This document shows, in pieces, positions 2,630 to 35,117 of a stretch of DNA of 47,699 nt. Numbering within the stretch: position 1 is the stretch's first letter; every line of letters begins with the position of its first letter. Source of the stretch: Ruminococcus sp. GTDB taxonomy: Bacteria; Bacillota; Clostridia; Oscillospirales; Ruminococcaceae. A program made the translations under genes and the position numbers. The notes under the pieces were generated by a model. The model was not told the origin of the DNA, did not search any database, and was given only the letters and a program-made list of their open reading frames with translations. The stretch spans positions 1 to 47,699 of the forward strand of contig JAFVCV010000021.1 of the NCBI GenBank assembly GCA_017478965.1, written 5' to 3'.

Positions 2630-4033
2630 TCAGTTCTGAGAGACAGTGTTCACAGCACCTAAGAAAACTGGAAAGCCTGTTTCAGTATCTACTATGGCAT
2701 AGACGAAAGGTCTGTCAAGGCGGACAGTATGGCTCTCTTTCTCTTCCATTACGGCCTCGCATTTGTCCATGATGACTGCGGTAGCTGCTGCGGCTCTGGT
2801 CCCCTTACGGTCAAGCTCGATATGCGTCTTGTGCAGGACATCGCTGATATACAGCGGCTCACCGTCATAGGTGTCGCCCATCAGGCTGAAATCGGCGGCG
2901 CCGGCAGAAAACGGTATATCCATTCCCATGGCCTTCAGCGGGTCTGAAAGGCTGCTGCTGTAATCGTAGGCAAATTCCGGGATATAGGCGTATACATCAG
3001 CACTGCGTCTGCTGTTCCAGTACTCTGTCAGCTGCCCGCCGGTCAGTCCCTCAACGAAGTCGGGCAGATCTTTCCCCTCCTCAGGAAGTATTGCCATCAG
3101 AGCATAGTCATACCCCTTATAGAACTTTACAAAACCCTCGGCGCCGTTCCCGTCAAAATACAGTTCCTCCGTGCTGTAAAGAAGGGCGCAGTCCTCTTCG
3201 GTGCCGTCCTGGCAGGTGAAGATGCTGTCCTCAAATACATGGTCATCGGTATAGTCCTCAGCCCATTCGGCCTCGAAGGCGATCGCATTGACAAGTACCA
3301 TCACTGTCAAAGGGTCCAGCTCATTGATTATCTCCGGTATCATGCCGTTGGTATTATTATTGACCCAGGCGTTGATATCATTAACCGCATCTTCATTAAA
3401 ATCCACCTGATAGCTCTCGGCGTCGTAATATTTTCTTAAAGTATCTGCGAAGTCCTGGCTTATCTCAAAGACCCCGTCGTGTCTTGACCATACTGAGTTG
3501 GCTGCATTGAAGGTCAGCTCCTGGCTGCCTTTTGCACGGGAAAGGATATAGTTCAGGGACCGGTTCTGCTCCTCGGTACTTATCCCGCCGCAGAGCACCT
3601 GCTGCATCTGCTCAGAAGTCTCGCCGACGGCGCCGTTGGCAGTCATTCCCAGGGCGGAAAGTACGGAAAGGGGCGAGACAAGGACGTTCTTGCCTTCCCT
3701 CAGCTCATCTGCACAGGTGTTTTTTATCAGCTCTGCTGAAAAGTCTGCGGCGGCGTTTATGTAATCACTGTCGGCGCCGTCGGAAAGCTTAGCGAACTCT
3801 GTCTGAGAGACCGGCTCTGCGCTGACCGGAGCCTGAGTTATCTTTCCGTCGTCGTTCTCTGCGGCAGAAGAGGTGCTGTCCGGCCTGTCCGCAGCACTGT
3901 CGCTGACTGGGTCTTTTGTATTCCCCGCCGGGGAAGTCTCCGTATTTTCGACCCTGCCGCAGGCCCCGATGCTCAGGGCCATCAACATCGCTGCGGCAGC
4001 GGCTGCTGTTCTTTTAACAAAATCATTTTTCAT
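2630..4033 (-). CDS. Serpin-family protease inhibitor, lipoprotein
   Basis: A 467-aa lipoprotein. The signal peptide ends in a lipobox IGAC (Cys25), followed by an acidic Ser/Thr/Asp-rich tether to about residue 80 and then a full serpin domain: NGAVGETSEQM near the start, the breach/shutter-like LVNAIAFEAEW, and the C-terminal RPFVYAIVD and PVFLGAV. The hinge GTRAAAATAV begins at residue 411, so the inhibitory stressed-to-relaxed transition is probably intact (family knowledge). Counting from the hinge puts P1 near the Cys of MDKCEA, with uncertainty of a few residues. It is probably anchored outside the cell, protecting surface enzymes or blocking host, protist or competitor proteases. It is monocistronic; no dockerin is present. 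No strong promoter could be read upstream. Confidence 0.92.
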   Translation of the reverse strand: MKNDFVKRTAAAAAAMLMALSIGACGRVENTETSPAGNTKDPVSDSAADRPDSTSSAAENDDGKITQAPVSAEPVSQTEFAKLSDGADSDYINAAADFSAELIKNTCADELREGKNVLVSPLSVLSALGMTANGAVGETSEQMQQVLCGGISTEEQNRSLNYILSRAKGSQELTFNAANSVWSRHDGVFEISQDFADTLRKYYDAESYQVDFNEDAVNDINAWVNNNTNGMIPEIINELDPLTVMVLVNAIAFEAEWAEDYTDDHVFEDSIFTCQDGTEEDCALLYSTEELYFDGNGAEGFVKFYKGYDYALMAILPEEGKDLPDFVEGLTGGQLTEYWNSRRSADVYAYIPEFAYDYSSSLSDPLKAMGMDIPFSAGAADFSLMGDTYDGEPLYISDVLHKTHIELDRKGTRAAAATAVIMDKCEAVMEEKESHTVRLDRPFVYAIVDTETGFPVFLGAVNTVSQN

Positions 4034-9827: not shown

Positions 9828-11603
9828 TTATTTATTCAGCAGCTCCAGGGTCTTTTCACTGTAGACCTTACTGTTTTTATACCATATATAGAGCCAGTCT
9901 CCGACAGAGTTGCCCTTGGTATCCAGATAGAGCGCCCACACGTACCAGTAGAACGACGCCAGTGCCGTATAGCCGGTAAAATGGGCCAGCTGAGCGTCAG
10001 ACTCGAACTCTCCGCCGTTATACATCCTATAGATCTCCAGGGCCTCATCATAGCTGTAGTCCGAGCAGCAGATGAAGGTGCCGAGGTCGCTGGCCACGTC
10101 ATCGTTGCCGGAATACTCCCAGTCGATAAGATACATCTTGCCGTCGCTGCCGATTATGAAATTCGGTGAATAGCAGTCGTTATGGCAAAGGCATTTCGTG
10201 CTGTACTTATCAGCGGTGACGATATCCCTGACCTGCTCTATCCTGGCGAGCAGCTCACGGAAATCCTCGTTCTCGGTCTTGCCGAGAGCTTTCAGGTTGT
10301 CTATAAAGCCCTGGGTCTTGTTCCACAGACCGAAGTCGAACTCTGAAACTATCCTCAGGTCATGCAGCTTTCTCATCATTTTCAGCGCCGTGCCCACCTC
10401 GGAGAGATTGTGATAATCCATCTCTCTTGCGTCCTCAACGAACCTGGATATCTTCCAGCCCTCATTCTCGTCCATGTAGATGAAGGTGTCGTCCAGTCCG
10501 TTGTCAGAGGCCACCTTCATGGAAAAAGCCTCGCTGGTGCGGTTTATATACTTCTCGGTACCCTTGCCCGGATGACGGTAAACATACTTGTTCCCCTTGG
10601 CAGAAAAGCTGAAAGAAGTGTTCGTCAGCCCTGCGCTGATGGCCTGGATATCGGTGATATCTCTTATCTCGCAGTCCAGCACCCGACAGATGTTCTTCAT
10701 TATCTTTGAGTCGATATTGTTTATATACTCCGGGTCGAACATCCTAAGCTCGTCGATCGAATCGAACTCCAGGACCTTGTCGGAATCGTATCTTCTGATA
10801 TACATTTCCAGCTCGTCGGTATGGCGCATAAAAACGTTTTCCCACAGCTGCTGCCTTACCTCGGGAGAACCGTATTCACGGCTCAGTATCTCCTTGAACC
10901 GGGCGCTGAACTCAGCGTCAAAATAAACGTGGCCCAGCATATACCAGGAATTCTCCCCGCCTATGGTGACCTTCTTTATCCTGTCGTCCCTGTCCGTCAC
11001 CAGGCAGTACTCAAAGGTCTTGCCGGAGGCGTAGACCGCAGAATAATAGGCACGGTATACATATTCCTCGAAAACGTTTTCCACAAAATAGTTGTCGCTG
11101 GAGCAGATATAGGTGTTTCCCAGCCTGTCCAGTACCTTCATCAGTGTGGAAGGATTGTTATACCTGTAGTAGTCGCTGTTGACCACAAGCTTTACCCCGA
11201 ACTTGTCCTCCAGATAGAAGAACCGCTCGCTCATGTAGCCCACCACGATGGTGATGTCTGTTATGCCCTTTTCTATCAGCTGTCTTATCTGTCTTTCGAT
11301 AAGCACCTCGCCCCTTACCACCAGCAGTCCCTTGGGAGTCTCGTATGAAAGGGGTGCGAAACGGCTGGACATACCCGCCGCCATTATGACCGCATTGGCG
11401 ACCTTGTAAGGCCGCAGGGCCTCGGTGCCCTTGTCGGTGACTTTCCTTGTGCTGTCAATGAGCTTTTTCTGCATAAGCTCCTTGGTCAGGGAATTGACCT
11501 TGCCAAGAGAGAACCCCAGCCTGTCGGCAAGGCTCCTCTGGGAAAGCTCACTGCCGCTGTTTTTCAGGCAAACCATCATCTCAAATTCAGATCTGCTCAG
11601 CAT
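9828..11603 (-). CDS. Fusion: winged HTH + LicC-like cytidylyltransferase + LicA-like choline kinase
   Basis: A 591-aa three-part protein. Residues 1-62 form a MarR-like winged helix (ELSQRSLADRLGFSLGKVNSLTK). Residues about 68-290 are a nucleotidyltransferase with the signature AVIMAAGMSSRFAP, then ETPKGLL, and a metal-binding Asp in CSSDNYF (D170), as in CTP:phosphocholine cytidylyltransferase LicC. Residues about 305-591 are a choline/aminoglycoside-kinase fold with the catalytic HNDCYSPNF (474 on) and metal site LIDWEYSG (D494). One chain could phosphorylate choline and form CDP-choline while binding DNA. It heads the operon with a 60-aa membrane protein and a permease. Substrate could instead be ethanolamine or a related alcohol. 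A perfect promoter and clustered half-sites precede it. Confidence 0.88.
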   Translation of the reverse strand: MLSRSEFEMMVCLKNSGSELSQRSLADRLGFSLGKVNSLTKELMQKKLIDSTRKVTDKGTEALRPYKVANAVIMAAGMSSRFAPLSYETPKGLLVVRGEVLIERQIRQLIEKGITDITIVVGYMSERFFYLEDKFGVKLVVNSDYYRYNNPSTLMKVLDRLGNTYICSSDNYFVENVFEEYVYRAYYSAVYASGKTFEYCLVTDRDDRIKKVTIGGENSWYMLGHVYFDAEFSARFKEILSREYGSPEVRQQLWENVFMRHTDELEMYIRRYDSDKVLEFDSIDELRMFDPEYINNIDSKIMKNICRVLDCEIRDITDIQAISAGLTNTSFSFSAKGNKYVYRHPGKGTEKYINRTSEAFSMKVASDNGLDDTFIYMDENEGWKISRFVEDAREMDYHNLSEVGTALKMMRKLHDLRIVSEFDFGLWNKTQGFIDNLKALGKTENEDFRELLARIEQVRDIVTADKYSTKCLCHNDCYSPNFIIGSDGKMYLIDWEYSGNDDVASDLGTFICCSDYSYDEALEIYRMYNGGEFESDAQLAHFTGYTALASFYWYVWALYLDTKGNSVGDWLYIWYKNSKVYSEKTLELLNK

Positions 11604-11838: not shown

Positions 11839-13866
11839 TCACTTCCTGCTCTCTAAGGTCTTTATAACATATCTGCCGTAGAGTATCCTGCTCTTGCCGA
11901 TATTGAAAATGCGCTCGCTGCGGGTCTTTGTGATAGTCTCCTCAAAGCTCTCCCTGTTATCGAGCATATACTTCACCAGGTCATTCACGCCTTCGAGCTT
12001 ATCCGGATCGATGGAGCGGCCGATGACCTCTCTGAGGGTGATGTTTATCGGTCTGGTCTTTATCTTGTCATATTCCGGGTTCATGACCTTCATAGGGGTA
12101 TTTATGAACAGCACCGGATGCCTGGTGACAAAGGCGAACTCCCAGGAGATATCCGACCAGTCGGTGATAAGTATATCCGACTCCATGATGGGATTATTGG
12201 AGGAGAAATCCGTCTGTATCTCAACATTTTTGCGGTCTGCGTACTTCTCCTTCATGACCTTGAACTTCTCCGGCTCATGCCTTACCTGCTGGGGGTGCGG
12301 GCGCAGGATAATGTTATATTCAGTCTCGCTGAGCCTGTCTATCAGCTCATCGACGCAAAGGTCGATGATATTATCCGGCTGCCAGGAGGGTGCTATGAGT
12401 ATCCTGGGCGGGTCGTTTTTCGGGTGCTCCTCAGAGTCGTACTTCTCGATCATCTCATCTATGAGCGTATACCCTGTTTCAACAAGACGCTTTTTCGGGG
12501 TCCCGTAAAGCTCCTCGGTGTCCCTTATCTCGTCTATGGTGTCCTTGCCGGGACAAAATACGGTGTCAAAGTAGTTGAGCGCCCCCTTGCGGAAGGTCAG
12601 GGCTACGCTTCCCATTCCGTGGGAAACGAAGACATACTCGATATCGTTCCTTATTCTGGAGCGTTTGATGTGGTATTTCTCCAGGTCCGGCATGGTCATT
12701 ACGCACATATCGCAGTCCAGCTTCATGAAAAGCGGTATAAGGAACTTGTCCGAGGAAACGTAGTAGGGATGTATCTGCTCCCTTGGGTCATTGAAGATAT
12801 TGTCCTCAGGGTCGCTGGTGACGTAGTGTATCTGTATATCGGAGTTTTCGCAGATATAGTCTATCATACCCTTAAAATACTTATAGAAACCGTTGGACTC
12901 GGAATAGATCATCAGCTGCATATCCTTCACGCTGAAAAAGCGCTTATAGTCAGCCCTCTCTCTGGATACGTACTTTTTGTGTATCTTCTCCTTTTCGGCC
13001 TTCTGCTCGTTCATGAGCTTGATATAGCTCAGGTCTACATACTTCTGAGGGGGTATGATAAGGTTGACCAGATACATGAATGGAATGGAAAACAGATTGC
13101 CGAATATCCAGTAGAGCCCCACTCCCGCCGGCACAAGAAATGCAAAATAGGTGGAGAAGGCGATGAGGAAAACTGTGGTTATGAGCTTGTTCCAGAAGCC
13201 TGCGGATACCTGCAGGATATTGATCTTGTTCTGGACATAGCACAGCAGCCATGCGCTCAGCCCTGACAGCAGGGGTATCAGCAGAAGTATATAATTATCC
13301 TTAAAGGAGGGTGTAAGGCTGAGGTCGATGCCTAAGAAGTCTGTATTCAGGCCCCTTATCGCCCCTCCGGCTGCCCTCAGGCCCTCAGGCACCAGAGCGC
13401 CCTGCTTTATCATTCTGATGATCTCCGGCTGGTATGAATTCTCCTCAAGCATTTCTGCCGGCACCAGCGCCGCCATCCAGTCCTTGAGCTGAGAGATGAC
13501 GCCGCCCTCCAGCTGTACCACGTAGGACAGAGGGTGGTATATGACATACACCAGGCCAAGCACCAGGGGTATCTGTATCAGCAGCGGCACCATACCCAGA
13601 ATAGGCTTATAGTTATAGCGCTTATAGAGAGCCAGCTGCTCGTCGGCCAGCTTGTCCTTGTCGTCTATGTACTTTATTTTCAGAGCGTTCTCCTCCGGCA
13701 TGAGCCGGGCCATGTTGATAGAGTTCTTCTGCGTCACCAGATTAAGGGGCAGGAGTATGACCTTCGTCACCAGAGTGAACACGATTATACTCAGTCCGTA
13801 ATCCTTGATGATATTGAAGATCAGGCTCATCAGCTTTCCCAGCAGGCCGCCTATAAAACTTATCAT
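11839..13866 (-). CDS. Fusion: YidC/Oxa1-like insertase + CDP-glycerol glycerophosphotransferase-like domain
   Basis: A 675-aa protein. Residues 1-300 are a YidC/Oxa1 fold: first membrane segment IIVFTLVTKVILLPL with a basic Lys35 where family members carry the groove Arg, then LVTQKNSINMARLMPE, NYKPILGMVPLLIQIP, and late segments including AGVGLYWIFGNLFSIP. Residues about 330-675 match TagB/TagF CDP-glycerol transferases: VFVSHGMGSVA, ILIAPSWQPDN, NIILRPHPQQVRH and SDILITDWSDISWEFAF. The transferase half would sit in the cytoplasm and extend a teichoic-acid-like poly(alcohol phosphate). ATG 13866 has AGGAGGA 8 nt upstream. It lies just upstream of the LicC-LicA operon, which supports a shared job in cell-surface polymer synthesis; whether the YidC half inserts proteins or only anchors the enzyme is unknown. 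Confidence 0.9.
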   Translation of the reverse strand: MISFIGGLLGKLMSLIFNIIKDYGLSIIVFTLVTKVILLPLNLVTQKNSINMARLMPEENALKIKYIDDKDKLADEQLALYKRYNYKPILGMVPLLIQIPLVLGLVYVIYHPLSYVVQLEGGVISQLKDWMAALVPAEMLEENSYQPEIIRMIKQGALVPEGLRAAGGAIRGLNTDFLGIDLSLTPSFKDNYILLLIPLLSGLSAWLLCYVQNKINILQVSAGFWNKLITTVFLIAFSTYFAFLVPAGVGLYWIFGNLFSIPFMYLVNLIIPPQKYVDLSYIKLMNEQKAEKEKIHKKYVSRERADYKRFFSVKDMQLMIYSESNGFYKYFKGMIDYICENSDIQIHYVTSDPEDNIFNDPREQIHPYYVSSDKFLIPLFMKLDCDMCVMTMPDLEKYHIKRSRIRNDIEYVFVSHGMGSVALTFRKGALNYFDTVFCPGKDTIDEIRDTEELYGTPKKRLVETGYTLIDEMIEKYDSEEHPKNDPPRILIAPSWQPDNIIDLCVDELIDRLSETEYNIILRPHPQQVRHEPEKFKVMKEKYADRKNVEIQTDFSSNNPIMESDILITDWSDISWEFAFVTRHPVLFINTPMKVMNPEYDKIKTRPINITLREVIGRSIDPDKLEGVNDLVKYMLDNRESFEETITKTRSERIFNIGKSRILYGRYVIKTLESRK

Positions 13867-13919
13867 CTTTGATCCTCCTACTTGTTTCTTTCCGGTCCTG
13901 TTTAAGAACACACATTATG

Positions 13920-17777: not shown

Positions 17778-17806
17778 TTGTAAACCGTGCCGGGCAATGT
17801 TATAAT
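17778..17806 (+). promoter_or_regulatory. Sigma-A promoter of the ClpP-VirD4 operon
   Basis: TTGTAA (17778-17783), 17 bp, TATAAT (17801-17806); the ClpP ATG at 17861 follows AAAGGAGGAA. Confidence 0.8.
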
Positions 17807-17860: not shown

Positions 17861-18496
17861 ATGAAAGACAATATCATACTATCGGGGCCGAACGGAAAGG
17901 CACCCGACACACTTCCCACCATGGTCATAAGGGAGGACTCCACAGGAGCCAGGCAGTTTTCAGTGGAATCGGCGGCCTTTGAAAACGGAGAGCTGAGCAT
18001 CACCGGACCCATAAACGCCCTCATGGCCCAGAGGGTCAGCACTCTGCTGAGAATGAGGGCGGCGCAGAAAAAGCCGGTGGTACTCTACATCAATTCGCCG
18101 GGGGGCGAGGTACAGGCGGGACTTGCCATAGTGGACATGATACGAAACTATCCCTATGAGCTCCACGCCTTCTGCACAGGCCTGGCGGCGAGCATGGCGG
18201 CGGTGATCCTGGCGTCGGCTCCCAGGGGCCACAGGCATATCCTTCCCCACTCCAAGACCATGATACACGAGCCGCTTATCGCCGGAGATGTGGGAGGTTC
18301 GGCCTCGTCGATCGAAAGGACCGCCGCCTCTATCCTGGAGACCAAGTCCATCATAAACGCTCTTCTTGCCGAATACACCGGCAGGACCCGGGAGGAGATC
18401 GACAGGGCCACCGCCTTCGATAATTTCCTCAACGCAGAAAAGTCCGTAGAATTCGGGCTTTGCGACAACGTAGCAACAGGTTATGAGATGATATAA
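17861..18496 (+). CDS. ClpP-like serine protease subunit, partnered with a VirD4-like ATPase
   Basis: A 211-aa ClpP-fold protein. The family core is clear: VVLYINSPGGEVQAGLAIVDMI, then the nucleophile Ser111 in GLAASMAAVIL, His136 in TMIHEPL and Asp187 in AFDNFLNAEKSVEFGL, so the triad is complete. The first 40 residues differ from housekeeping ClpP and look like a separate N-terminal arm. ClpP normally forms a tetradecamer fed by ClpX, ClpA or ClpC ATPases. Here no Clp ATPase is adjacent; instead a VirD4/TraG-like ATPase begins 15 bp downstream in the same transcript. It is therefore unlikely to be the main clpP gene; self-assembly and partner are open. Confidence 0.9.
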   Translation: MKDNIILSGPNGKAPDTLPTMVIREDSTGARQFSVESAAFENGELSITGPINALMAQRVSTLLRMRAAQKKPVVLYINSPGGEVQAGLAIVDMIRNYPYELHAFCTGLAASMAAVILASAPRGHRHILPHSKTMIHEPLIAGDVGGSASSIERTAASILETKSIINALLAEYTGRTREEIDRATAFDNFLNAEKSVEFGLCDNVATGYEMI

Positions 18497-18511
18497 AAGG
18501 AGAGGATAACT

Positions 18512-19816
18512 ATGTCGGAAGTAAAACTGAATATCGCACGTGCCCACTTTTCGGGAAATACCGTACTTTCAGACGGCAGTCTGGTGGGGTACGGCAGGCT
18601 CGACGGCTCGGCCAACGATCTGATGACGGTCATCGGAGCGGCCGGCAGCGGCAAGAGCCGCAGCGTGGTCATACCCAATATCCTGGCGGCGACGGGTTCC
18701 ATGTACATAGCGGACATGAAAGGCTCGCTTTACAGCCAGTGCGCAGCTCATCTCAGAGCGCTGGGCATCCAGGTCCGAAGGTTCAACTTCGTCTCGCCTG
18801 GCGGGTCCATGAAATATAACCCCCTGGAGCCCGTCAGGACCACCAACGACATCTTAAAGCTCGCCCACCAGCTGGTCTATTTAGGTCCCGGCAGCGGCCG
18901 TGACTCAGACCCTTTCTGGGACCGAGCGGCGGAGATGCTGCTCTCTGCCATAATCGGATATATAGTGGAAGGGGGAAAGGAAGTTGAGCCGAGCCTGACA
19001 GGGGTCATAAGGTTCATGAGCTACATCGACCCAGACGCCATGGAGGAACACTCCACCTGTCAGGCAGAGCGGCTTTTCAAAAGCCACAAGCTCAGCTATT
19101 TCCAGAAGACGGGAAAGCAAAGCTGGGCCTATCAGCAGTTTGAGAAGTACCTGGGCCTTTCCCACAAGACCTTCAGCTGCGTGATGGCCACCCTCCACGG
19201 GATACTGGCGCCCCTGGACACAGAGGAGATCCGCTCTCGTATGGACGGCAGGAGCTTTGACATGACTGAGCCGGCCCGCAAAAAGACTGCGGTCTTCATC
19301 GAGATAAGCGACACGGACCGTTCAAAGGACGTTCTGGTAAACCTGTTTTTCAGCCAGGCCATGAACACCCTGTGCGAATACGCAGACAGTTCAGAGTCCA
19401 AAAGGCTCCCCATGCCGGTCAGGTTCATACTCGACGACTTCGGCACCTGCTGCAAGATAGACGGATTTGAGAACATGATCTCAAATATCCGCTCCAGGGG
19501 CATCTCCGCCATGCTGATGCTCCAGTCCCTGGCTCAGCTCCGGGCCGGCTACGGCGCCCACTGGGAGACTATCACCGACAACTGCGACACCACCATCTAC
19601 CTGGGCGGCAGCAACCTGGAAACGGCTGACTACATCGCCCGCCTGGTGAACAAGCCCATGAGCAGGATAATCGGTATGCCCCTGAGGACCTGCTGGATCT
19701 TCCGCCGTGGGGAAAGTCCCTACTTTGCCGAGACCGTTGACCTCAGCTCCTACGACCTGTCTATGTTCAGGTTTGTTGATTCAGCCAGGACCGTTCTTCC
19801 CGAACAGAAGGACTGA
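18512..19816 (+). CDS. Soluble VirD4/TraG-family ATPase, no conjugation genes nearby
   Basis: A 434-aa ATPase of the type IV coupling-protein (VirD4/TraG) family in the HerA/FtsK class. Walker A is GAAGSGKS (42-49), Walker B is RFILDDF (304-310), and family segments include KYNPLEPVRT, PFWDRAAEMLL, NIRSRGISAMLMLQSLAQL and DNCDTTIYLGGSNLETADYIA. Coupling proteins usually have one or two N-terminal membrane segments; this one starts directly before the ATPase core and has none. The gene follows the ClpP-like gene by 15 bp and ends at a terminator, and no relaxase, VirB4 or integrase lies near. It may be a hexameric DNA or protein motor that serves the protease; that role is inference. Confidence 0.88.
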   Translation: MSEVKLNIARAHFSGNTVLSDGSLVGYGRLDGSANDLMTVIGAAGSGKSRSVVIPNILAATGSMYIADMKGSLYSQCAAHLRALGIQVRRFNFVSPGGSMKYNPLEPVRTTNDILKLAHQLVYLGPGSGRDSDPFWDRAAEMLLSAIIGYIVEGGKEVEPSLTGVIRFMSYIDPDAMEEHSTCQAERLFKSHKLSYFQKTGKQSWAYQQFEKYLGLSHKTFSCVMATLHGILAPLDTEEIRSRMDGRSFDMTEPARKKTAVFIEISDTDRSKDVLVNLFFSQAMNTLCEYADSSESKRLPMPVRFILDDFGTCCKIDGFENMISNIRSRGISAMLMLQSLAQLRAGYGAHWETITDNCDTTIYLGGSNLETADYIARLVNKPMSRIIGMPLRTCWIFRRGESPYFAETVDLSSYDLSMFRFVDSARTVLPEQKD

Positions 19817-19832
19817 ACCGTCTCTTATGACA

Positions 19833-19859
19833 AACGCCCCCGCTTTATGCAGGGGCGTT
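19833..19859. terminator. Bidirectional terminator between the VirD4-like and YhaN-like genes
   Basis: AACGCCCC (19833-19840) pairs with GGGGCGTT (19852-19859), followed by a T tract; the two genes converge on it. Confidence 0.87.
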
Positions 19860-31049: not shown

Positions 31050-34000
31050 TCAGACGCTTATGTCGCCCTCGAACACCGTAACAGCATCGCCGGTGAGGTA
31101 AACTGCCTCATCGGTGTATTTTATCTTCAATGTGCCGCCCTTCAGTATGACGGTCACTTCCTCGTCCTTGGGGCAGAACCCGTTCAGCGCCGCAGCCACT
31201 ACCGCAGCGCAGGCACCGGTGCCGCAGGCGAAGGTCTCGCCGGAGCCTCTCTCCCACACTCTCATTTTCAGGGTGTGGCTGTCTATGACCTTTATGAACT
31301 CTGTGTTGACCCTCTCCGGGAAGATGGGGTCATGCTCGAACTTTGGCCCTACCTTCTCGATCTCCATGGAGTCAACATTGTTCATGAACACCACGCAGTG
31401 AGGATTGCCCATGGAAACGCAGGTCACTCTGTATTCGCCCTCAAGGCCGCTGATATTCACCGGCCTATCAACTACCATGCCATTCTCGTCAGGCTCCAGT
31501 GCGGTAGGGATAAGCTCAGGCTCCAGGATCGCCCTTCCCATATCCACCGTCGCCCCGTTGACCTCGCCGTAATGGCGGCTGAGACTTACCTTGATGATGC
31601 CGGAAAGAGTCTCTATGGTCATCCTGTCCCTGTCAACAAGTCCGTTGTCCCTCATGAACTTCGCCACGCACCTTATGCCGTTGCCGCACATCTTTCCCTC
31701 TGAGCCGTCAAGATTGAACATCCTCATCTTGCCGTCGGCTATCTTCGAGCGGCAGACCAGTATTACGCCGTCGCCGCCTATACCGAAATGCCTGTCTGAA
31801 AGATTGAGCGCAAAGCCCTCAGGATTGTCTACCATGCGGTCAAAGCAGTTAAAGTAAACATAGTCGTTTCCGCAGCCGTGCATCTTGGTGAAGTGGAGCT
31901 TGACCTTTTCACGGCGCATATTGTTGATATCCACTATCTCAGTATTGGACTCGTTGTACTTGCTCCTTATGGACGCAGCGATGGCATTGGCGGTGTCGAT
32001 GGAGGTAAGACAGGGAATGTTCCATTCTACGGTCTTTCGCCTTATCTTCACCGAGTCCCTGGAGGGTATCCTTCCCTTGGAAGAGGTGGAGATAACATAG
32101 GAGATCTTCCCGCTCTCGATAAGGGTCAGTGTGTTGTCGTCGCTCTCGTGTATCTTCTTCACAGGCTGGGCCTCGATGCCGTGATCGTGGAGCACCGCAG
32201 CAGTACCCTCGGTGGCATATATCTTAAATCCCAGGTCAGCAAAGAGCTTGGCGGTCTGGGGTATCTCCTTCTTGTCCGAATCCCTTACGGTGATGAACAC
32301 GCCGCCCTTCTGCTCCAGCTTGTAGCCGGCGGCCGTCAGTCCCTTATAAAGAGACTCCTCCAGAGAACTGGACACAGCCAGCACCTCGCCTGTGGACTTC
32401 ATCTCAGGCCCCAGGTGATTGTCAACGCCTATGAGCTTTTCAAAGCTGAACACCGGCACCTTCACCGCAACATAAGGAGAATTCGGGTGCAGCCCGACGC
32501 CGTAGCCCATATCCCTCAGTTTTTCGCCCAGCATGGCCTTTGTGGCAAGGTCCACCATGGGAACGCCTGTGACTTTGGAGATATACGGTATGGTCCTGGA
32601 GGATCTGGGGTTCACCTCTATGACATAAAGCTCGTCCTCATATATAAGGTACTGTATATTAACCAGGCCCTTGGTCTTCAGAGAGACTGCCAGTCTCTTC
32701 GAGCAGTCCACCACCTTGTCTATGAGCCTGTCGGAAACGTTCCATGCCGGATAAACTGCGATAGAGTCGCCGGAATGGATACCGGTCCTTTCGATGTGCT
32801 CCATTATGCCGGGGATAAGTATCTCCTCCCCGTCGCAGATAGCGTCTATCTCCAGCTCGATGCCCATGAGATACTTGTCTATGAGCACGGGGTTCTCGAT
32901 GCCCTGGTCAAGTATTATAGCCATGTATTCCCTGATATCCGCATCGTTGAAGGCGATTATCATATTCTGTCCGCCCAGCACATAGGAGGGTCTCATAAGA
33001 ACAGGATAGCCTATCCTGTTGGCTATCGTGAGAGCCTCTTCGCAGGTCATGACCGTAAAGCCCTCGGGGCGCTTGATATGCAGCTCCTCCAGCAGCTCGT
33101 CGAACCTTTCCCTGTCCTCCGCAGCGTCGATGGAATCCGGAGGTGTGCCAAGTATGTTCACCCCGTTGCTGCTGAGGAATTTAGTGAGCTTTATAGCAGT
33201 CTGTCCGCCAAAGGCCACCACTACCCCCACAGGCTTTTCCACCCTGATGATGTTCATGACGTCCTCATTGGTAAGGGGTTCAAAATAAAGCCTGTCGGCG
33301 GTGTCGAAGTCGGTGGAGACAGTCTCGGGGTTGTTGTTTACGATGACAACATCGAACCCATGCTCCTTCAGCGCCCAGACACAGTGAACCGAGGCATAGT
33401 CGAATTCGATGCCCTGCCCTATCCTGATAGGACCTGAGCCGAACACTATCACAGTGCCCTTGCTGCTTTTTTTATCAAGGCTGTCTATGAACTCCTCCGC
33501 CTCGTCCTCTTCATCGTAGGTCGAGTAGAAATACGGCGTGTTTGCCGCAAATTCCGCCGCACAGGTATCCACCATCTTGAACACTGCCTTCGCAGGCTCT
33601 GCTATCTTTTCACCGCTGAGCCTTTCGATGACCTTGTCCGGATAGCCCAGCTGTTTGGCTTTAAGATAAGTCTCACGGGATATCTGTCCCTTTGCAAGCT
33701 CCTTCTCCGTGGCGATAAGGTTTCTGAGCTTGCCTAAGAACCATTCATCTATCATGGTGATCCGGTGGATTTCCTCCACGCTGACCCCTCTGCGAAGAGC
33801 TTCGTATACCACGAACAGCCTTTCGTCGCTGGTCTCCCGGAGCTTTGCTCTTATCTCCTCATCGCTCAGCTGCTCCAGCTTGGGAGAGATCAGGCAGTCG
33901 TGTCCTATCTCTGCGCCCCTTACAGCTTTCATTATGGCCTGCTCAAAGGTGGTGCCGATAGCCATGACCTCGCCGGTGGCCTTCATCTGGGTCCCAAGCT

Positions 34001-35117
34001 CTCTCTTTGCATAAACGAACTTGTCAAAGGGCCACTTCGGCAGCTTTACCACCACGTAGTCCAGGGCCGGTTCAAAGCAGGCGTAGGTCTTGCCGGTGAC
34101 GGCATTCTTTATCTCGTCAAGAGTATAGCCTATGGCTATCTGAGCGGCCACCTTGGCTATGGGATATCCCGTAGCCTTTGAGGCCAGAGCCGACGAGCGT
34201 GATACTCTTGGGTTTACTTCGATGACCGCATACTCGAAAGTTTCCGGATCCAGTGCGAACTGACAGTTACAGCCGCCCTCAACTTTCAGGGTGTCGATTA
34301 TTTTAAGAGCCGCCGAACGCAGCATCTGATATTCCTTATCCGCCAGTGTGACTGCCGGGGCGATGACGATAGAGTCGCCGGTATGTACTCCCACCGGGTC
34401 AAAGTTCTCCATTGAGCAGACTGTGATGACGTTGCCCTTTGAGTCACGCATGACCTCGAACTCTATCTCCTTCCACCCGGCTATGCACTTCTCCACCAGC
34501 ACCTGTGTGATGGGAGAGAGATAAAGGCCGTTTCGGGTGATCTCGATAAGCTCCTCCTCGTTGTGGACGATACCGCCGCCGGTCCCGCCGAGGGTGAAGG
34601 CGGGCCTTATGATGAGCGGGTAGCCTATGCCCTCGCTCCTGGCAAACTCCACAGCGTCCTCGACGGTATTTACCACCTTAGAGGGTATACAAGGCTGACC
34701 TATGGACTCCATGGTGTCCTTGAACAGCTGCCTGTCCTCGGCCTTGTCTATGGTCTCCGGGTCTGCCCCCAGGAGCTTTACATTGTACTTTTCCAGGAAA
34801 CCTTCCTTTGCCAGCTGCATGGAAAGGGTCAGTCCAGTCTGTCCTCCCAGTGTGGAAAGCAGGCTGTCAGGCCTTTCCTTGATGATGACCCTCTTGACCG
34901 TTTCAAGTGTCAGAGGCTCTATATATATCTTATCCGCCATGGCGTTGTCAGTCATGATGGTGGCGGGGTTGGAATTAATGAGTATGACCTCCAGCCCCTG
35001 CTGTTTCAGCGCCCGGCAGGCCTGGGTGCCTGCGTAGTCGAATTCCGCAGCCTGTCCGATGACAATAGGCCCGGAGCCTATGACAAGCACACGCTGTATA
35101 TCTTTGTTCAAAGGCAT
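31050..35117 (-). CDS. carB-dapF: Fusion: carbamoyl-phosphate synthase large subunit + diaminopimelate epimerase
   Basis: A 1355-aa protein read in one frame. Residues 1-1065 are a complete CarB: two ATP-grasp halves (GSGPIVIGQAAEFDYAGTQ near the start, GSGPIRIGQGIEFDYASVH near 555) and the C-terminal MGS-like allosteric domain. From residue 1067 (base 31919) a full DapF follows: FTKMHGCGNDYVYFN, then the catalytic Cys pair Cys1144 in MCGNGIRC and Cys1298 in FACGTGACA. CarB makes carbamoyl phosphate for arginine and pyrimidines; DapF converts LL- to meso-diaminopimelate for lysine and peptidoglycan. No stop codon or ribosome site is seen at the junction. carA ends two bases upstream of the start, so the transcript is carA, carB-dapF. 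Confidence 0.93.
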   Translation of the reverse strand: MPLNKDIQRVLVIGSGPIVIGQAAEFDYAGTQACRALKQQGLEVILINSNPATIMTDNAMADKIYIEPLTLETVKRVIIKERPDSLLSTLGGQTGLTLSMQLAKEGFLEKYNVKLLGADPETIDKAEDRQLFKDTMESIGQPCIPSKVVNTVEDAVEFARSEGIGYPLIIRPAFTLGGTGGGIVHNEEELIEITRNGLYLSPITQVLVEKCIAGWKEIEFEVMRDSKGNVITVCSMENFDPVGVHTGDSIVIAPAVTLADKEYQMLRSAALKIIDTLKVEGGCNCQFALDPETFEYAVIEVNPRVSRSSALASKATGYPIAKVAAQIAIGYTLDEIKNAVTGKTYACFEPALDYVVVKLPKWPFDKFVYAKRELGTQMKATGEVMAIGTTFEQAIMKAVRGAEIGHDCLISPKLEQLSDEEIRAKLRETSDERLFVVYEALRRGVSVEEIHRITMIDEWFLGKLRNLIATEKELAKGQISRETYLKAKQLGYPDKVIERLSGEKIAEPAKAVFKMVDTCAAEFAANTPYFYSTYDEEDEAEEFIDSLDKKSSKGTVIVFGSGPIRIGQGIEFDYASVHCVWALKEHGFDVVIVNNNPETVSTDFDTADRLYFEPLTNEDVMNIIRVEKPVGVVVAFGGQTAIKLTKFLSSNGVNILGTPPDSIDAAEDRERFDELLEELHIKRPEGFTVMTCEEALTIANRIGYPVLMRPSYVLGGQNMIIAFNDADIREYMAIILDQGIENPVLIDKYLMGIELEIDAICDGEEILIPGIMEHIERTGIHSGDSIAVYPAWNVSDRLIDKVVDCSKRLAVSLKTKGLVNIQYLIYEDELYVIEVNPRSSRTIPYISKVTGVPMVDLATKAMLGEKLRDMGYGVGLHPNSPYVAVKVPVFSFEKLIGVDNHLGPEMKSTGEVLAVSSSLEESLYKGLTAAGYKLEQKGGVFITVRDSDKKEIPQTAKLFADLGFKIYATEGTAAVLHDHGIEAQPVKKIHESDDNTLTLIESGKISYVISTSSKGRIPSRDSVKIRRKTVEWNIPCLTSIDTANAIAASIRSKYNESNTEIVDINNMRREKVKLHFTKMHGCGNDYVYFNCFDRMVDNPEGFALNLSDRHFGIGGDGVILVCRSKIADGKMRMFNLDGSEGKMCGNGIRCVAKFMRDNGLVDRDRMTIETLSGIIKVSLSRHYGEVNGATVDMGRAILEPELIPTALEPDENGMVVDRPVNISGLEGEYRVTCVSMGNPHCVVFMNNVDSMEIEKVGPKFEHDPIFPERVNTEFIKVIDSHTLKMRVWERGSGETFACGTGACAAVVAAALNGFCPKDEEVTVILKGGTLKIKYTDEAVYLTGDAVTVFEGDISV

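What the first reader, a model, noticed from the sequence alone, without database searches (positions are those of the whole stretch)
17861..19816. ClpP-like protease in an operon with a membrane-anchor-less VirD4/TraG ATPase
Both proteins keep their catalytic residues (Ser111/His136/Asp187; Walker A and B). There is no Clp unfoldase, relaxase, VirB4 or integrase nearby, and the ATPase lacks the usual membrane anchor. A hexameric motor of the HerA/FtsK class paired with a ring-shaped protease could be a new DNA-linked proteolysis machine, a defence system, or a remnant of a conjugative element.
Basis: partly seen in the sequence, partly recalled or inferred. Interest (0 to 1): 0.8.

Follow-up and report, generated by a model that had tools for sequence, protein, structure and literature searches.

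The report
Protease paired with soluble VirD4-like motor
A gut-type bacterium carries, three times over, an old and tightly linked gene pair made of a ClpP-type protein shredder and a ring-motor ATPase related to those of DNA-transfer machines; it looks like an undescribed protein-destroying device, but what it destroys is not known.

Summary
In detail: a ClpP-like gene (17861-18496) and a VirD4/TraG-like ATPase (18512-19816) form a two-gene unit. It is not a chance neighbourhood, and a conjugation remnant is unlikely. Outside the seed set, 39 of 43 related soluble ATPases have a ClpP-like gene beside them (53 of 57 with seeds), against 0 of 99 loci of conjugative-type VirD4. The two proteins diverged together (Mantel r 0.92; best of 9,999 shuffles 0.33). 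The ATPases show no membrane segment (0 of 31) and have Asp where 20 of 20 conjugative ones have Glu in Walker B. The ClpPs keep Ser and His (54 of 54); the pocket that docks ClpX in ordinary ClpP is altered, one aromatic position being lost in all 54. The own genome has three pairs and no VirB4 or PF03432 relaxase hit. Many other copies have an upstream gene, some with helix-turn-helix, macro or MmeI_N domains; the window copy has none of these. Best reading: a dedicated ATP-driven or ATP-gated ClpP machine with a repurposed coupling-protein motor, perhaps for defence. Interaction, mechanism and role are inferred; structure prediction failed. Nine paper searches listed nothing on the pair.

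The parts
17778..17806 (+). promoter-like site TTGTAA-17-TATAAT with TG before the second hexamer
   Evidence: 10 of 12 matches; 3 such sites found in the region against a mean of 1.0 in shuffles, so suggestive only
17861..18496 (+). ClpP-like serine protease, 211 aa
18191..18193 (+). codon of catalytic Ser111
   Evidence: Ser in 54 of 54 pair ClpPs
18266..18268 (+). codon of catalytic His136
   Evidence: His in 54 of 54
18419..18421 (+). codon of catalytic Asp187
   Evidence: Asp in 26 and Asn in 5 of 31 pair ClpPs
18512..19816 (+). soluble VirD4/TraG-clade ATPase, 434 aa, no membrane segment by hydropathy
18635..18658 (+). Walker A, GAAGSGKS (residues 42-49)
19433..19438 (+). Walker B acidic pair Asp308-Asp309 (Asp-Glu in conjugative relatives)
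19841..19857 (+). terminator-like hairpin followed by T run
   Evidence: 3 found against a mean of 1.8 in shuffles; its place after the second gene is what makes it plausible

Best explanation
The two genes encode one machine: a dedicated ClpP-type protease (expected double seven-membered ring) with its own hexameric motor, a soluble relative of the VirD4/TraG coupling proteins, in place of the usual AAA+ partner. The motor would bind a target, perhaps through the variable stretch where coupling proteins carry their all-alpha domain or through an adaptor, use ATP to pull the unfolded chain through its pore or to open the ClpP gate, and so destroy it. In many relatives an upstream gene, in some with a helix-turn-helix and a macro or MmeI_N domain, would report the trigger; the window's copy is the bare core. 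The role is probably conflict or mobile-element control rather than housekeeping. Shown: gene linkage, order, co-divergence, conserved catalytic residues, purifying selection in relatives, no membrane segment, an altered ClpX-type pocket, absence of the transfer genes searched. Inferred: complex formation, ring stoichiometry, unfolding or gating, trigger and target. My odds: functional partnership 0.8; ATPase drives or gates this ClpP 0.47; role in defence or mobile-element control 0.4.
For: Linkage: 16 of 16 new loci from the order and class samples and 23 of 27 from the family sample have a ClpP-like gene beside the soluble ATPase; 0 of 99 conjugative-type loci do. Same strand, ClpP first, 31 of 31; gap about -39 to 87 nt in 27 of 31. 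In the genus sample 13 soluble ATPases and 13 pair-type ClpPs match one to one in 10 of 29 genomes (they are the seeds of the profiles). Co-divergence: Mantel r 0.92 over 29 pairs, best of 9,999 shuffles 0.33. The 13 housekeeping ClpPs form one clade (100/100) without any pair ClpP; 20 conjugative ATPases fall on one side of a 100/99 branch. ClpX-type pocket (E. coli numbering recalled): position 82 aromatic in 13 of 13 housekeeping and 0 of 54 pair ClpPs; position 112 Phe in 13 of 13 and Phe or Tyr in 23 of 54. dN/dS 0.02 to 0.15 for both genes in 10 comparisons of relatives. The only solved relative by profile is Cag-beta, 8dol, a coupling protein for a protein substrate whose soluble region forms a hexamer with a narrow channel; its authors proposed p97-like threading (PMC9886983, passages). 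Recognised upstream gene families in 35 of 57 loci.
Against: No physical interaction was tested and structure prediction failed. Walker B Glu to Asp could mean slow or no turnover; in Cag-beta the Glu is needed (E551A and E551Q inactive). The Asp-Asp form is not tied to ClpP: relatives without ClpP have it too (L154, L174, L175, L243, L257). Of the four family-sample loci without ClpP, L243 and L257 look intact, L242 and L248 broken. The pocket is only partly changed: position 62 stays aromatic in 37 of 54, Leu114 stays in 43 of 54, the window keeps Tyr62 and Leu114. In the ClpP tree the housekeeping clade branches among the pair ClpPs, so their single origin is not shown. Co-divergence would also follow from linkage alone; no linked unrelated couple was run as a control. 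Five of 31 pair ClpPs have Asn for the catalytic Asp. The window copy has none of the recognised upstream genes. Neither protein nor the upstream genes scanned match a defence family well, apart from MmeI_N of L038, which matches type IIG restriction models at 8.3e-23.
Confidence: 0.47

Rival explanations
1. Signal switch: the ATPase is a DNA- or nucleotide-sensing ring that allosterically turns on ClpP to cut one partner, such as the protein encoded upstream, releasing a gene programme or a toxin-like activity. No processive unfolding.
For: Upstream genes of helix-turn-helix-like families in 20 of 57 loci (HTH matches by Pfam in L041, L138 and L143, by similarity in the others); Asp for Glu in Walker B suggests a slow ATP switch; coupling proteins bind DNA (PMC7434980, passages).
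Against: 22 of 57 loci, the window's among them, show none of the recognised upstream families; the ClpP keeps family match and triad, and a ClpP barrel normally needs fed substrate (recalled).
Confidence: 0.25
2. Co-regulated neighbours without a joint machine: the ClpP controls the level of the ATPase, or each serves a separate step of one pathway.
For: Intact-looking ATPases without ClpP exist (L243, L257, L154, L174); co-divergence alone follows from linkage.
Against: 39 of 43 linkage outside the seeds with order kept in 31 of 31; position 82 of the docking pocket changed in 54 of 54 pair ClpPs.
Confidence: 0.14
3. Remnant or trans-acting coupling protein of a conjugative or mobilizable element, with a stray ClpP.
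For: It passes the NCBIfam cut-off for a conjugal transfer family; coupling proteins without a membrane domain exist (pIP501 TraJ type; PMC7434980, passages); a Mob_Pre gene lies near the L046 pair; the L155 pair is on a contig classed as viral.
Against: No CD1110-type VirB4 or PF03432 relaxase hit in the own genome; only one of 30 pair contigs carries either, 40 kb or more away; the membrane-free conjugative protein L288 has Asp-Glu and branches on the conjugative side; purifying selection.
Confidence: 0.05
4. Domesticated phage head-maturation protease with a packaging ATPase.
For: ClpP-like head proteases match (phrog_94, 3.6e-37).
Against: Matches Clp protease models better; the ATPase matches coupling proteins at 1.7e-47 and terminase only at 0.0036; no portal or capsid match among the 30 other window frames scanned.
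Confidence: 0.03

Closest known systems
Conjugative VirD4/TraG coupling proteins, CD1115 family (NF045973)
   Same: Nucleotide-binding domain, Walker A, conserved Arg and Gln positions; 28 to 31% identity to the conjugative rows
   Different: No membrane segment, Asp-Asp Walker B, no VirB4 or relaxase linkage found, ClpP neighbour
Membrane-domain-free coupling proteins (pIP501 TraJ type, by PMC7434980; L288 here, assigned to it by me)
   Same: VirD4-like ATPase without a membrane segment
   Different: L288 sits among transfer genes, has Asp-Glu Walker B and branches on the conjugative side
Housekeeping ClpP of ClpXP/ClpCP
   Same: Family match, Ser-His-Asp triad, amino-terminal region aligned
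   Different: AAA+-docking pocket partly changed; outside the housekeeping clade; a non-AAA+ motor next door
HerA-effector defence pairs (HerA-DUF4297 seen in the listing; HerA-SIR2 and details recalled)
   Same: Two-gene plan: an ATPase of the HerA/FtsK/VirD4 superfamily plus an enzyme
   Different: ATPase is of the VirD4 branch by Pfam and the enzyme is a ClpP protease

Membership tests
Conjugative VirD4 coupling protein | VirD4/TraG nucleotide-binding domain | tested here: met
   PF02534 1.7e-47; NF045973 287.8 bits over cut-off 250
Conjugative VirD4 coupling protein | Membrane domain, or a place in a transfer operon if absent | tested here: not met
   0 of 31 pair ATPases with a hydrophobic segment, 17 of 20 conjugative ones with one; no transfer gene among 32 window frames
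Conjugative VirD4 coupling protein | Genome carries VirB4 and relaxase for it to couple | tested here: not met
   0 hits in G000 for CD1110-type VirB4 and PF03432; other relaxase families not searched, genome 92.8% complete
Conjugative VirD4 coupling protein | Asp-Glu Walker B | tested here: not met
   Asp-Asp in 31 of 31, Asp-Glu in 20 of 20 conjugative
ClpP protease | Clp family match and catalytic triad | tested here: met
   PF00574 4.5e-45; S111, H136, D187
ClpXP/ClpCP housekeeping protease | Aromatic docking pocket for AAA+ loops | tested here: inconclusive
   position 82 changed in 54 of 54, position 112 Phe or Tyr in 23 of 54, position 62 aromatic in 37 of 54, Leu114 in 43 of 54; pocket positions recalled from E. 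coli ClpP
ClpP protease | Tetradecamer and peptidase activity | not testable with these tools
   needs purified protein
Known anti-phage defence system (PADLOC-DB 2.0.0) | Core proteins match a defence model | tested here: not met
   ClpP no match at E 0.1; ATPase only mad8 at 3.2e-7, 28 bits
Known anti-phage defence system (PADLOC-DB 2.0.0) | Location in defence islands | not tested
   Ten hand-picked neighbours gave DpdF/RecQ-like or GajB-like helicase matches near some copies, without a control; control regions were fetched and lists drawn up but the comparison was not run
HerA-effector pair | ATPase belongs to HerA proper | tested here: not met
   Pfam gives T4SS-DNA_transf, TraG-D_C and TrwB_AAD_bind and no HerA model
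Phage head-maturation protease module | Portal, terminase or capsid genes adjacent | tested here: not met
   none among the window frames scanned

The most novel reading that the evidence does not exclude
The first compartmental protease driven by a motor of the HerA/FtsK/VirD4 branch instead of an AAA+ unfoldase: a DNA- and protein-transfer motor was freed from the membrane, tuned by a Walker B change and locked to a private ClpP, with exchangeable macro- or MmeI_N-type DNA-binding sensors, making a new class of proteolytic immune or mobile-element-control system in Clostridia-like gut bacteria.
Probability: 0.3. Interest if true: 0.9.

Novelty: new variant of a known kind. Interest (0 to 1): 0.7.

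Why it matters
All ClpP partners that I know of (recalled) are AAA+ ring ATPases. A VirD4-branch motor that serves ClpP would show that a second ATPase branch can drive a protease barrel. It would also give direct access to an open question in secretion: which enzyme unfolds the protein cargo (left open in PMC5826034, passages), since degradation is an easy read-out. Practically, the ATPase passes the NCBIfam cut-off for a conjugal transfer protein, so these loci may be miscounted as mobile elements.

Tried and rejected
Conjugation remnant: rejected on whole-genome VirB4 and relaxase searches. Phage packaging module: rejected. Loss of anchor as the novelty: dropped, because membrane-free coupling proteins are known; one was fetched as a control and differs at Walker B. 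The AAA_2 gene beside L037 and L038 as the missing unfoldase: dropped as a general answer; it was found in 3 of 22 pair genomes searched, beside the pair in two of them, and not in G000; a relative lies upstream of the L258 pair. Recent foreign origin by composition: not seen, pair G+C 0.568, flanking genes 0.566 and 0.579, window 0.527. The genome-contig scan with the single protein gave only two distant hits. Plasmid and phage collections: 2,903 and 40 records matched the ATPase, 30 rows of each seen; five plasmid regions were opened and none has a ClpP gene annotated. Plasmid hits of the ClpP: 30 of 130 rows seen, annotated as ClpP or not annotated, neighbours not checked. A viral-contig scan with the ClpP profile gave ten loci, of which only the one on the contig of L155 was examined.

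Literature: nine searches listed no paper on the pair by title or abstract start; some searches showed only part of their hits (15 of 61, 15 of 119, 20 of 85, 10 of 11). Two papers were searched by terms for ClpP and VirD4 without a hit and three were read by passages for mechanism. The library is open-access only.

Selection notes: the 14 seed pairs were picked from the 31 loci because they had a ClpP neighbour, so 39 of 43 is the fairer linkage count. 'Soluble' was decided by score and reach of the profile match, so a few short-frame hits ending near position 381 were counted as conjugative type. In the order, class, phylum and family samples only the best 4 or 5 first-look candidates per genome were scored, so copies are lower bounds. 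The 99 control loci include nine second copies of the same place, and most have only 1.5 kb of flank; left out of them were pairs (L112, L113, L155, L099 and the seeds), L154, L174, L175 and L179 (three Asp-Asp relatives without ClpP and what looks like a second copy of one) and, by oversight, the conjugative locus L030. Two family-sample hits (G195, G1386; frames of 617 and 667 residues) were left out of the 27 as conjugative type. In the Mantel test L142 and L155 were dropped as near-copies of L141; they are included in the 31 and the 54. Two divergent ClpP-like sequences (L192, L193) were left out of the 13 housekeeping ones. The L043 ATPase has Asp-Asp but branches beside the conjugative clade, on a long branch.

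Full report
What is there. Window 17861-18496 (+) encodes a 211-residue ClpP-like protease and 18512-19816 (+) a 434-residue VirD4/TraG-like ATPase. The genes are 15 nt apart, each behind a ribosome-binding-site-like sequence; a TTGTAA-17-TATAAT site lies upstream and a hairpin plus T run follows, both kinds of site only modestly above shuffles. Both flanking genes point the other way (an acetyltransferase and an SMC/SbcC-like ATPase), so the pair looks like a unit of its own. Of the 32 window frames scanned with Pfam, none matched an integrase or phage-structure family and none but the ATPase itself a transfer family. Pair and flanking genes have similar G+C.

Family identity. The protease matches PF00574 at 4.5e-45 and many solved ClpPs. 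The ATPase matches PF02534 at 1.7e-47 and passes the NCBIfam cut-off for the CD1115 VirD4-like conjugal transfer family; the only solved relative found by profile is the Cag-beta coupling protein, 8dol.

The pair recurs. In 61 genomes (own and relatives) the ATPase search returned 31 loci; 13 had a ClpP-like gene within the 1.5 kb held, and a fourteenth when more flank was read. A profile of these 14 separates soluble ATPases from conjugative ones by score. In the 29-genome genus sample it finds 13 soluble copies in 10 genomes, and a ClpP profile finds 13 matching ClpPs next to them, scoring above the housekeeping ClpPs (these 13 are themselves seeds). The own genome has three: C34 (the window), C2 and C11. 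The order and class samples (394 and 391 genomes) gave 16 new soluble loci, all 16 with ClpP. The family sample gave soluble copies in 24 of 297 genomes; of 27 new loci 23 had ClpP. Of the four without, L242 lacks Walker A and L248 is truncated, while L243 and L257 look intact. In all: 53 of 57, or 39 of 43 without the seeds. Control: 0 of 99 conjugative-type loci have a ClpP-like gene. A phylum sample of 398 genomes showed no soluble copy outside the class at E 1e-110. On viral contigs one locus of 26 has the pair (L155, nearly the same as L141 and L142); L154, L174 and L175 are Asp-Asp relatives without ClpP.

Signs of joint function. ClpP precedes the ATPase on the same strand in 31 of 31 pairs, within about -39 to 87 nt in 27; in L036, L037, L046 and L153 the gap is 271 to 1,444 nt, and in the first three I read a further gene in it. 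Distances of the two proteins correlate at r 0.92 over 29 pairs, best shuffle 0.33, with identities down to 21 and 25%, so the association is old; linkage alone would also give such a correlation, and no control couple was run. Both genes show dN/dS of 0.02 to 0.15 in ten comparisons of relatives, some with saturated dS; the window pair was not among them.

What changed in each protein. ATPase: no hydrophobic segment in 31 of 31, against 17 of 20 conjugative relatives with one; Walker B Asp-Asp in 31 of 31, against Asp-Glu in 20 of 20. A membrane-free conjugative protein (L288) keeps Asp-Glu, whereas the five ClpP-less relatives looked at have Asp-Asp, so the change marks a wider orphan group rather than ClpP pairing itself. 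The tree puts the 20 conjugative proteins on one side of a 100/99 branch. ClpP: Ser and His in 54 of 54, Asp in 26 and Asn in 5 of 31. The pocket used by AAA+ partners (positions recalled for E. coli ClpP) is altered: position 82 is aromatic in 13 of 13 housekeeping and 0 of 54 pair ClpPs, position 112 is Phe in 13 of 13 and Phe or Tyr in 23 of 54, position 62 is aromatic in 13 of 13 and 37 of 54, while Leu114 stays in 43 of 54; the window has Asn82, His112, Tyr62 and Leu114. The 13 housekeeping ClpPs form one clade, but it branches among the pair ClpPs, so a single origin of the latter is not shown.

Not a transfer system. In 23 pair-bearing genomes, CD1110-type VirB4 is found in 8 and PF03432 relaxase in 12; G000 has neither. 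Of the 30 pair contigs only G421 C12 carries either, with a relaxase 40 kb and a weak VirB4-like hit 62 kb away. Contigs are fragments, so this is a bound, and the 27 family-sample loci were not tested. Some copies do lie near mobile genes: Mob_Pre beside L046 and L155 on a contig classed as viral.

Accessory genes. In 35 of 57 loci a recognised gene family lies upstream on the same strand; in the 27 family-sample loci, which gave only two of the probes, the count is 14. In 20 of 57 it belongs to a family with helix-turn-helix-like segments: MmeI_N plus such a tail in L037 and L038, a macro domain or the L041 type, whose macro likeness is weak, in ten loci, a protein of roughly 500 to 600 residues with two HTH matches in its scanned member L143 in six, and the L036 type, HTH by weak similarity only, in two. 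The others are proteins of unknown function, mostly small. The window copy has none. A constant core, exchanged upstream genes, patchy spread and several diverged copies per genome are usual marks of conflict systems (recalled); that is inference, and the PADLOC scans gave no named system for the core; of the upstream genes scanned only MmeI_N of L038 matched a defence model well, type IIG restriction enzymes at 8.3e-23.

Mechanism. Conjugation needs unfolding of the relaxase and the unfoldase is not known (PMC5826034, passages); the soluble part of Cag-beta forms a narrow-channel hexamer and its authors proposed p97-like threading of CagA (PMC9886983, passages). A freed coupling-protein ring feeding or gating a ClpP barrel is therefore reasonable.

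Verdict. Real and conserved, and not found described in nine searches of an open-access library (listings only). I file it as a new variant of the ATP-dependent compartmental protease, with the bolder reading kept as the novel case. The taxon is not named by the tools; a Ruminococcus-like genus is my guess.

Noticed in passing
window 11839-13911 (-): YidC-type membrane insertase (PF02096) joined in one frame to a CDP-glycerol glycerophosphotransferase-like domain (PF04464).
   Followed up: no
window 31050-35117 (-): Carbamoyl-phosphate synthase large subunit and diaminopimelate epimerase domains in one 1355-residue frame.
   Followed up: no
window 2630-4033 (-): Serpin-family serine protease inhibitor gene (PF00079, 1.1e-82) in the same window as the ClpP-like protease.
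   Followed up: no
window 9828-11603 (-): Winged-helix, nucleotidyltransferase and choline-kinase-like domains in one protein.
   Followed up: no
L035:1750-4599, L042:5077-7341, L145:5639-8950, L153:959-2815: DEAD-box/RecQ-like helicase genes near four pair loci; in L035 and L042 together with the small-protein accessory genes. The RecQ name is mine; may be chance.
   Followed up: partly
L154:5983-7275, L174:618-1955, L175:2567-4414: Asp-Asp VirD4-like ATPases without ClpP on contigs classed as viral; membrane segments not tested. What is their partner?
   Followed up: partly
L143, L146, L147, L148, L149: Five pair ClpPs carry Asn at the catalytic Asp position, all in loci with the two-HTH type upstream protein.
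   Followed up: no
L037:8262-9734 and L038:10879-12351: A 490-residue AAA_2 ATPase downstream is 99% identical between two genomes whose ClpP and VirD4-like ATPase are only 79% identical, which suggests separate exchange of this gene.
   Followed up: partly
L046:10223-10891: A protein with an HExxH metalloprotease-like motif (HELIH, read by eye) lies between ClpP and the ATPase; no Pfam match.
   Followed up: no
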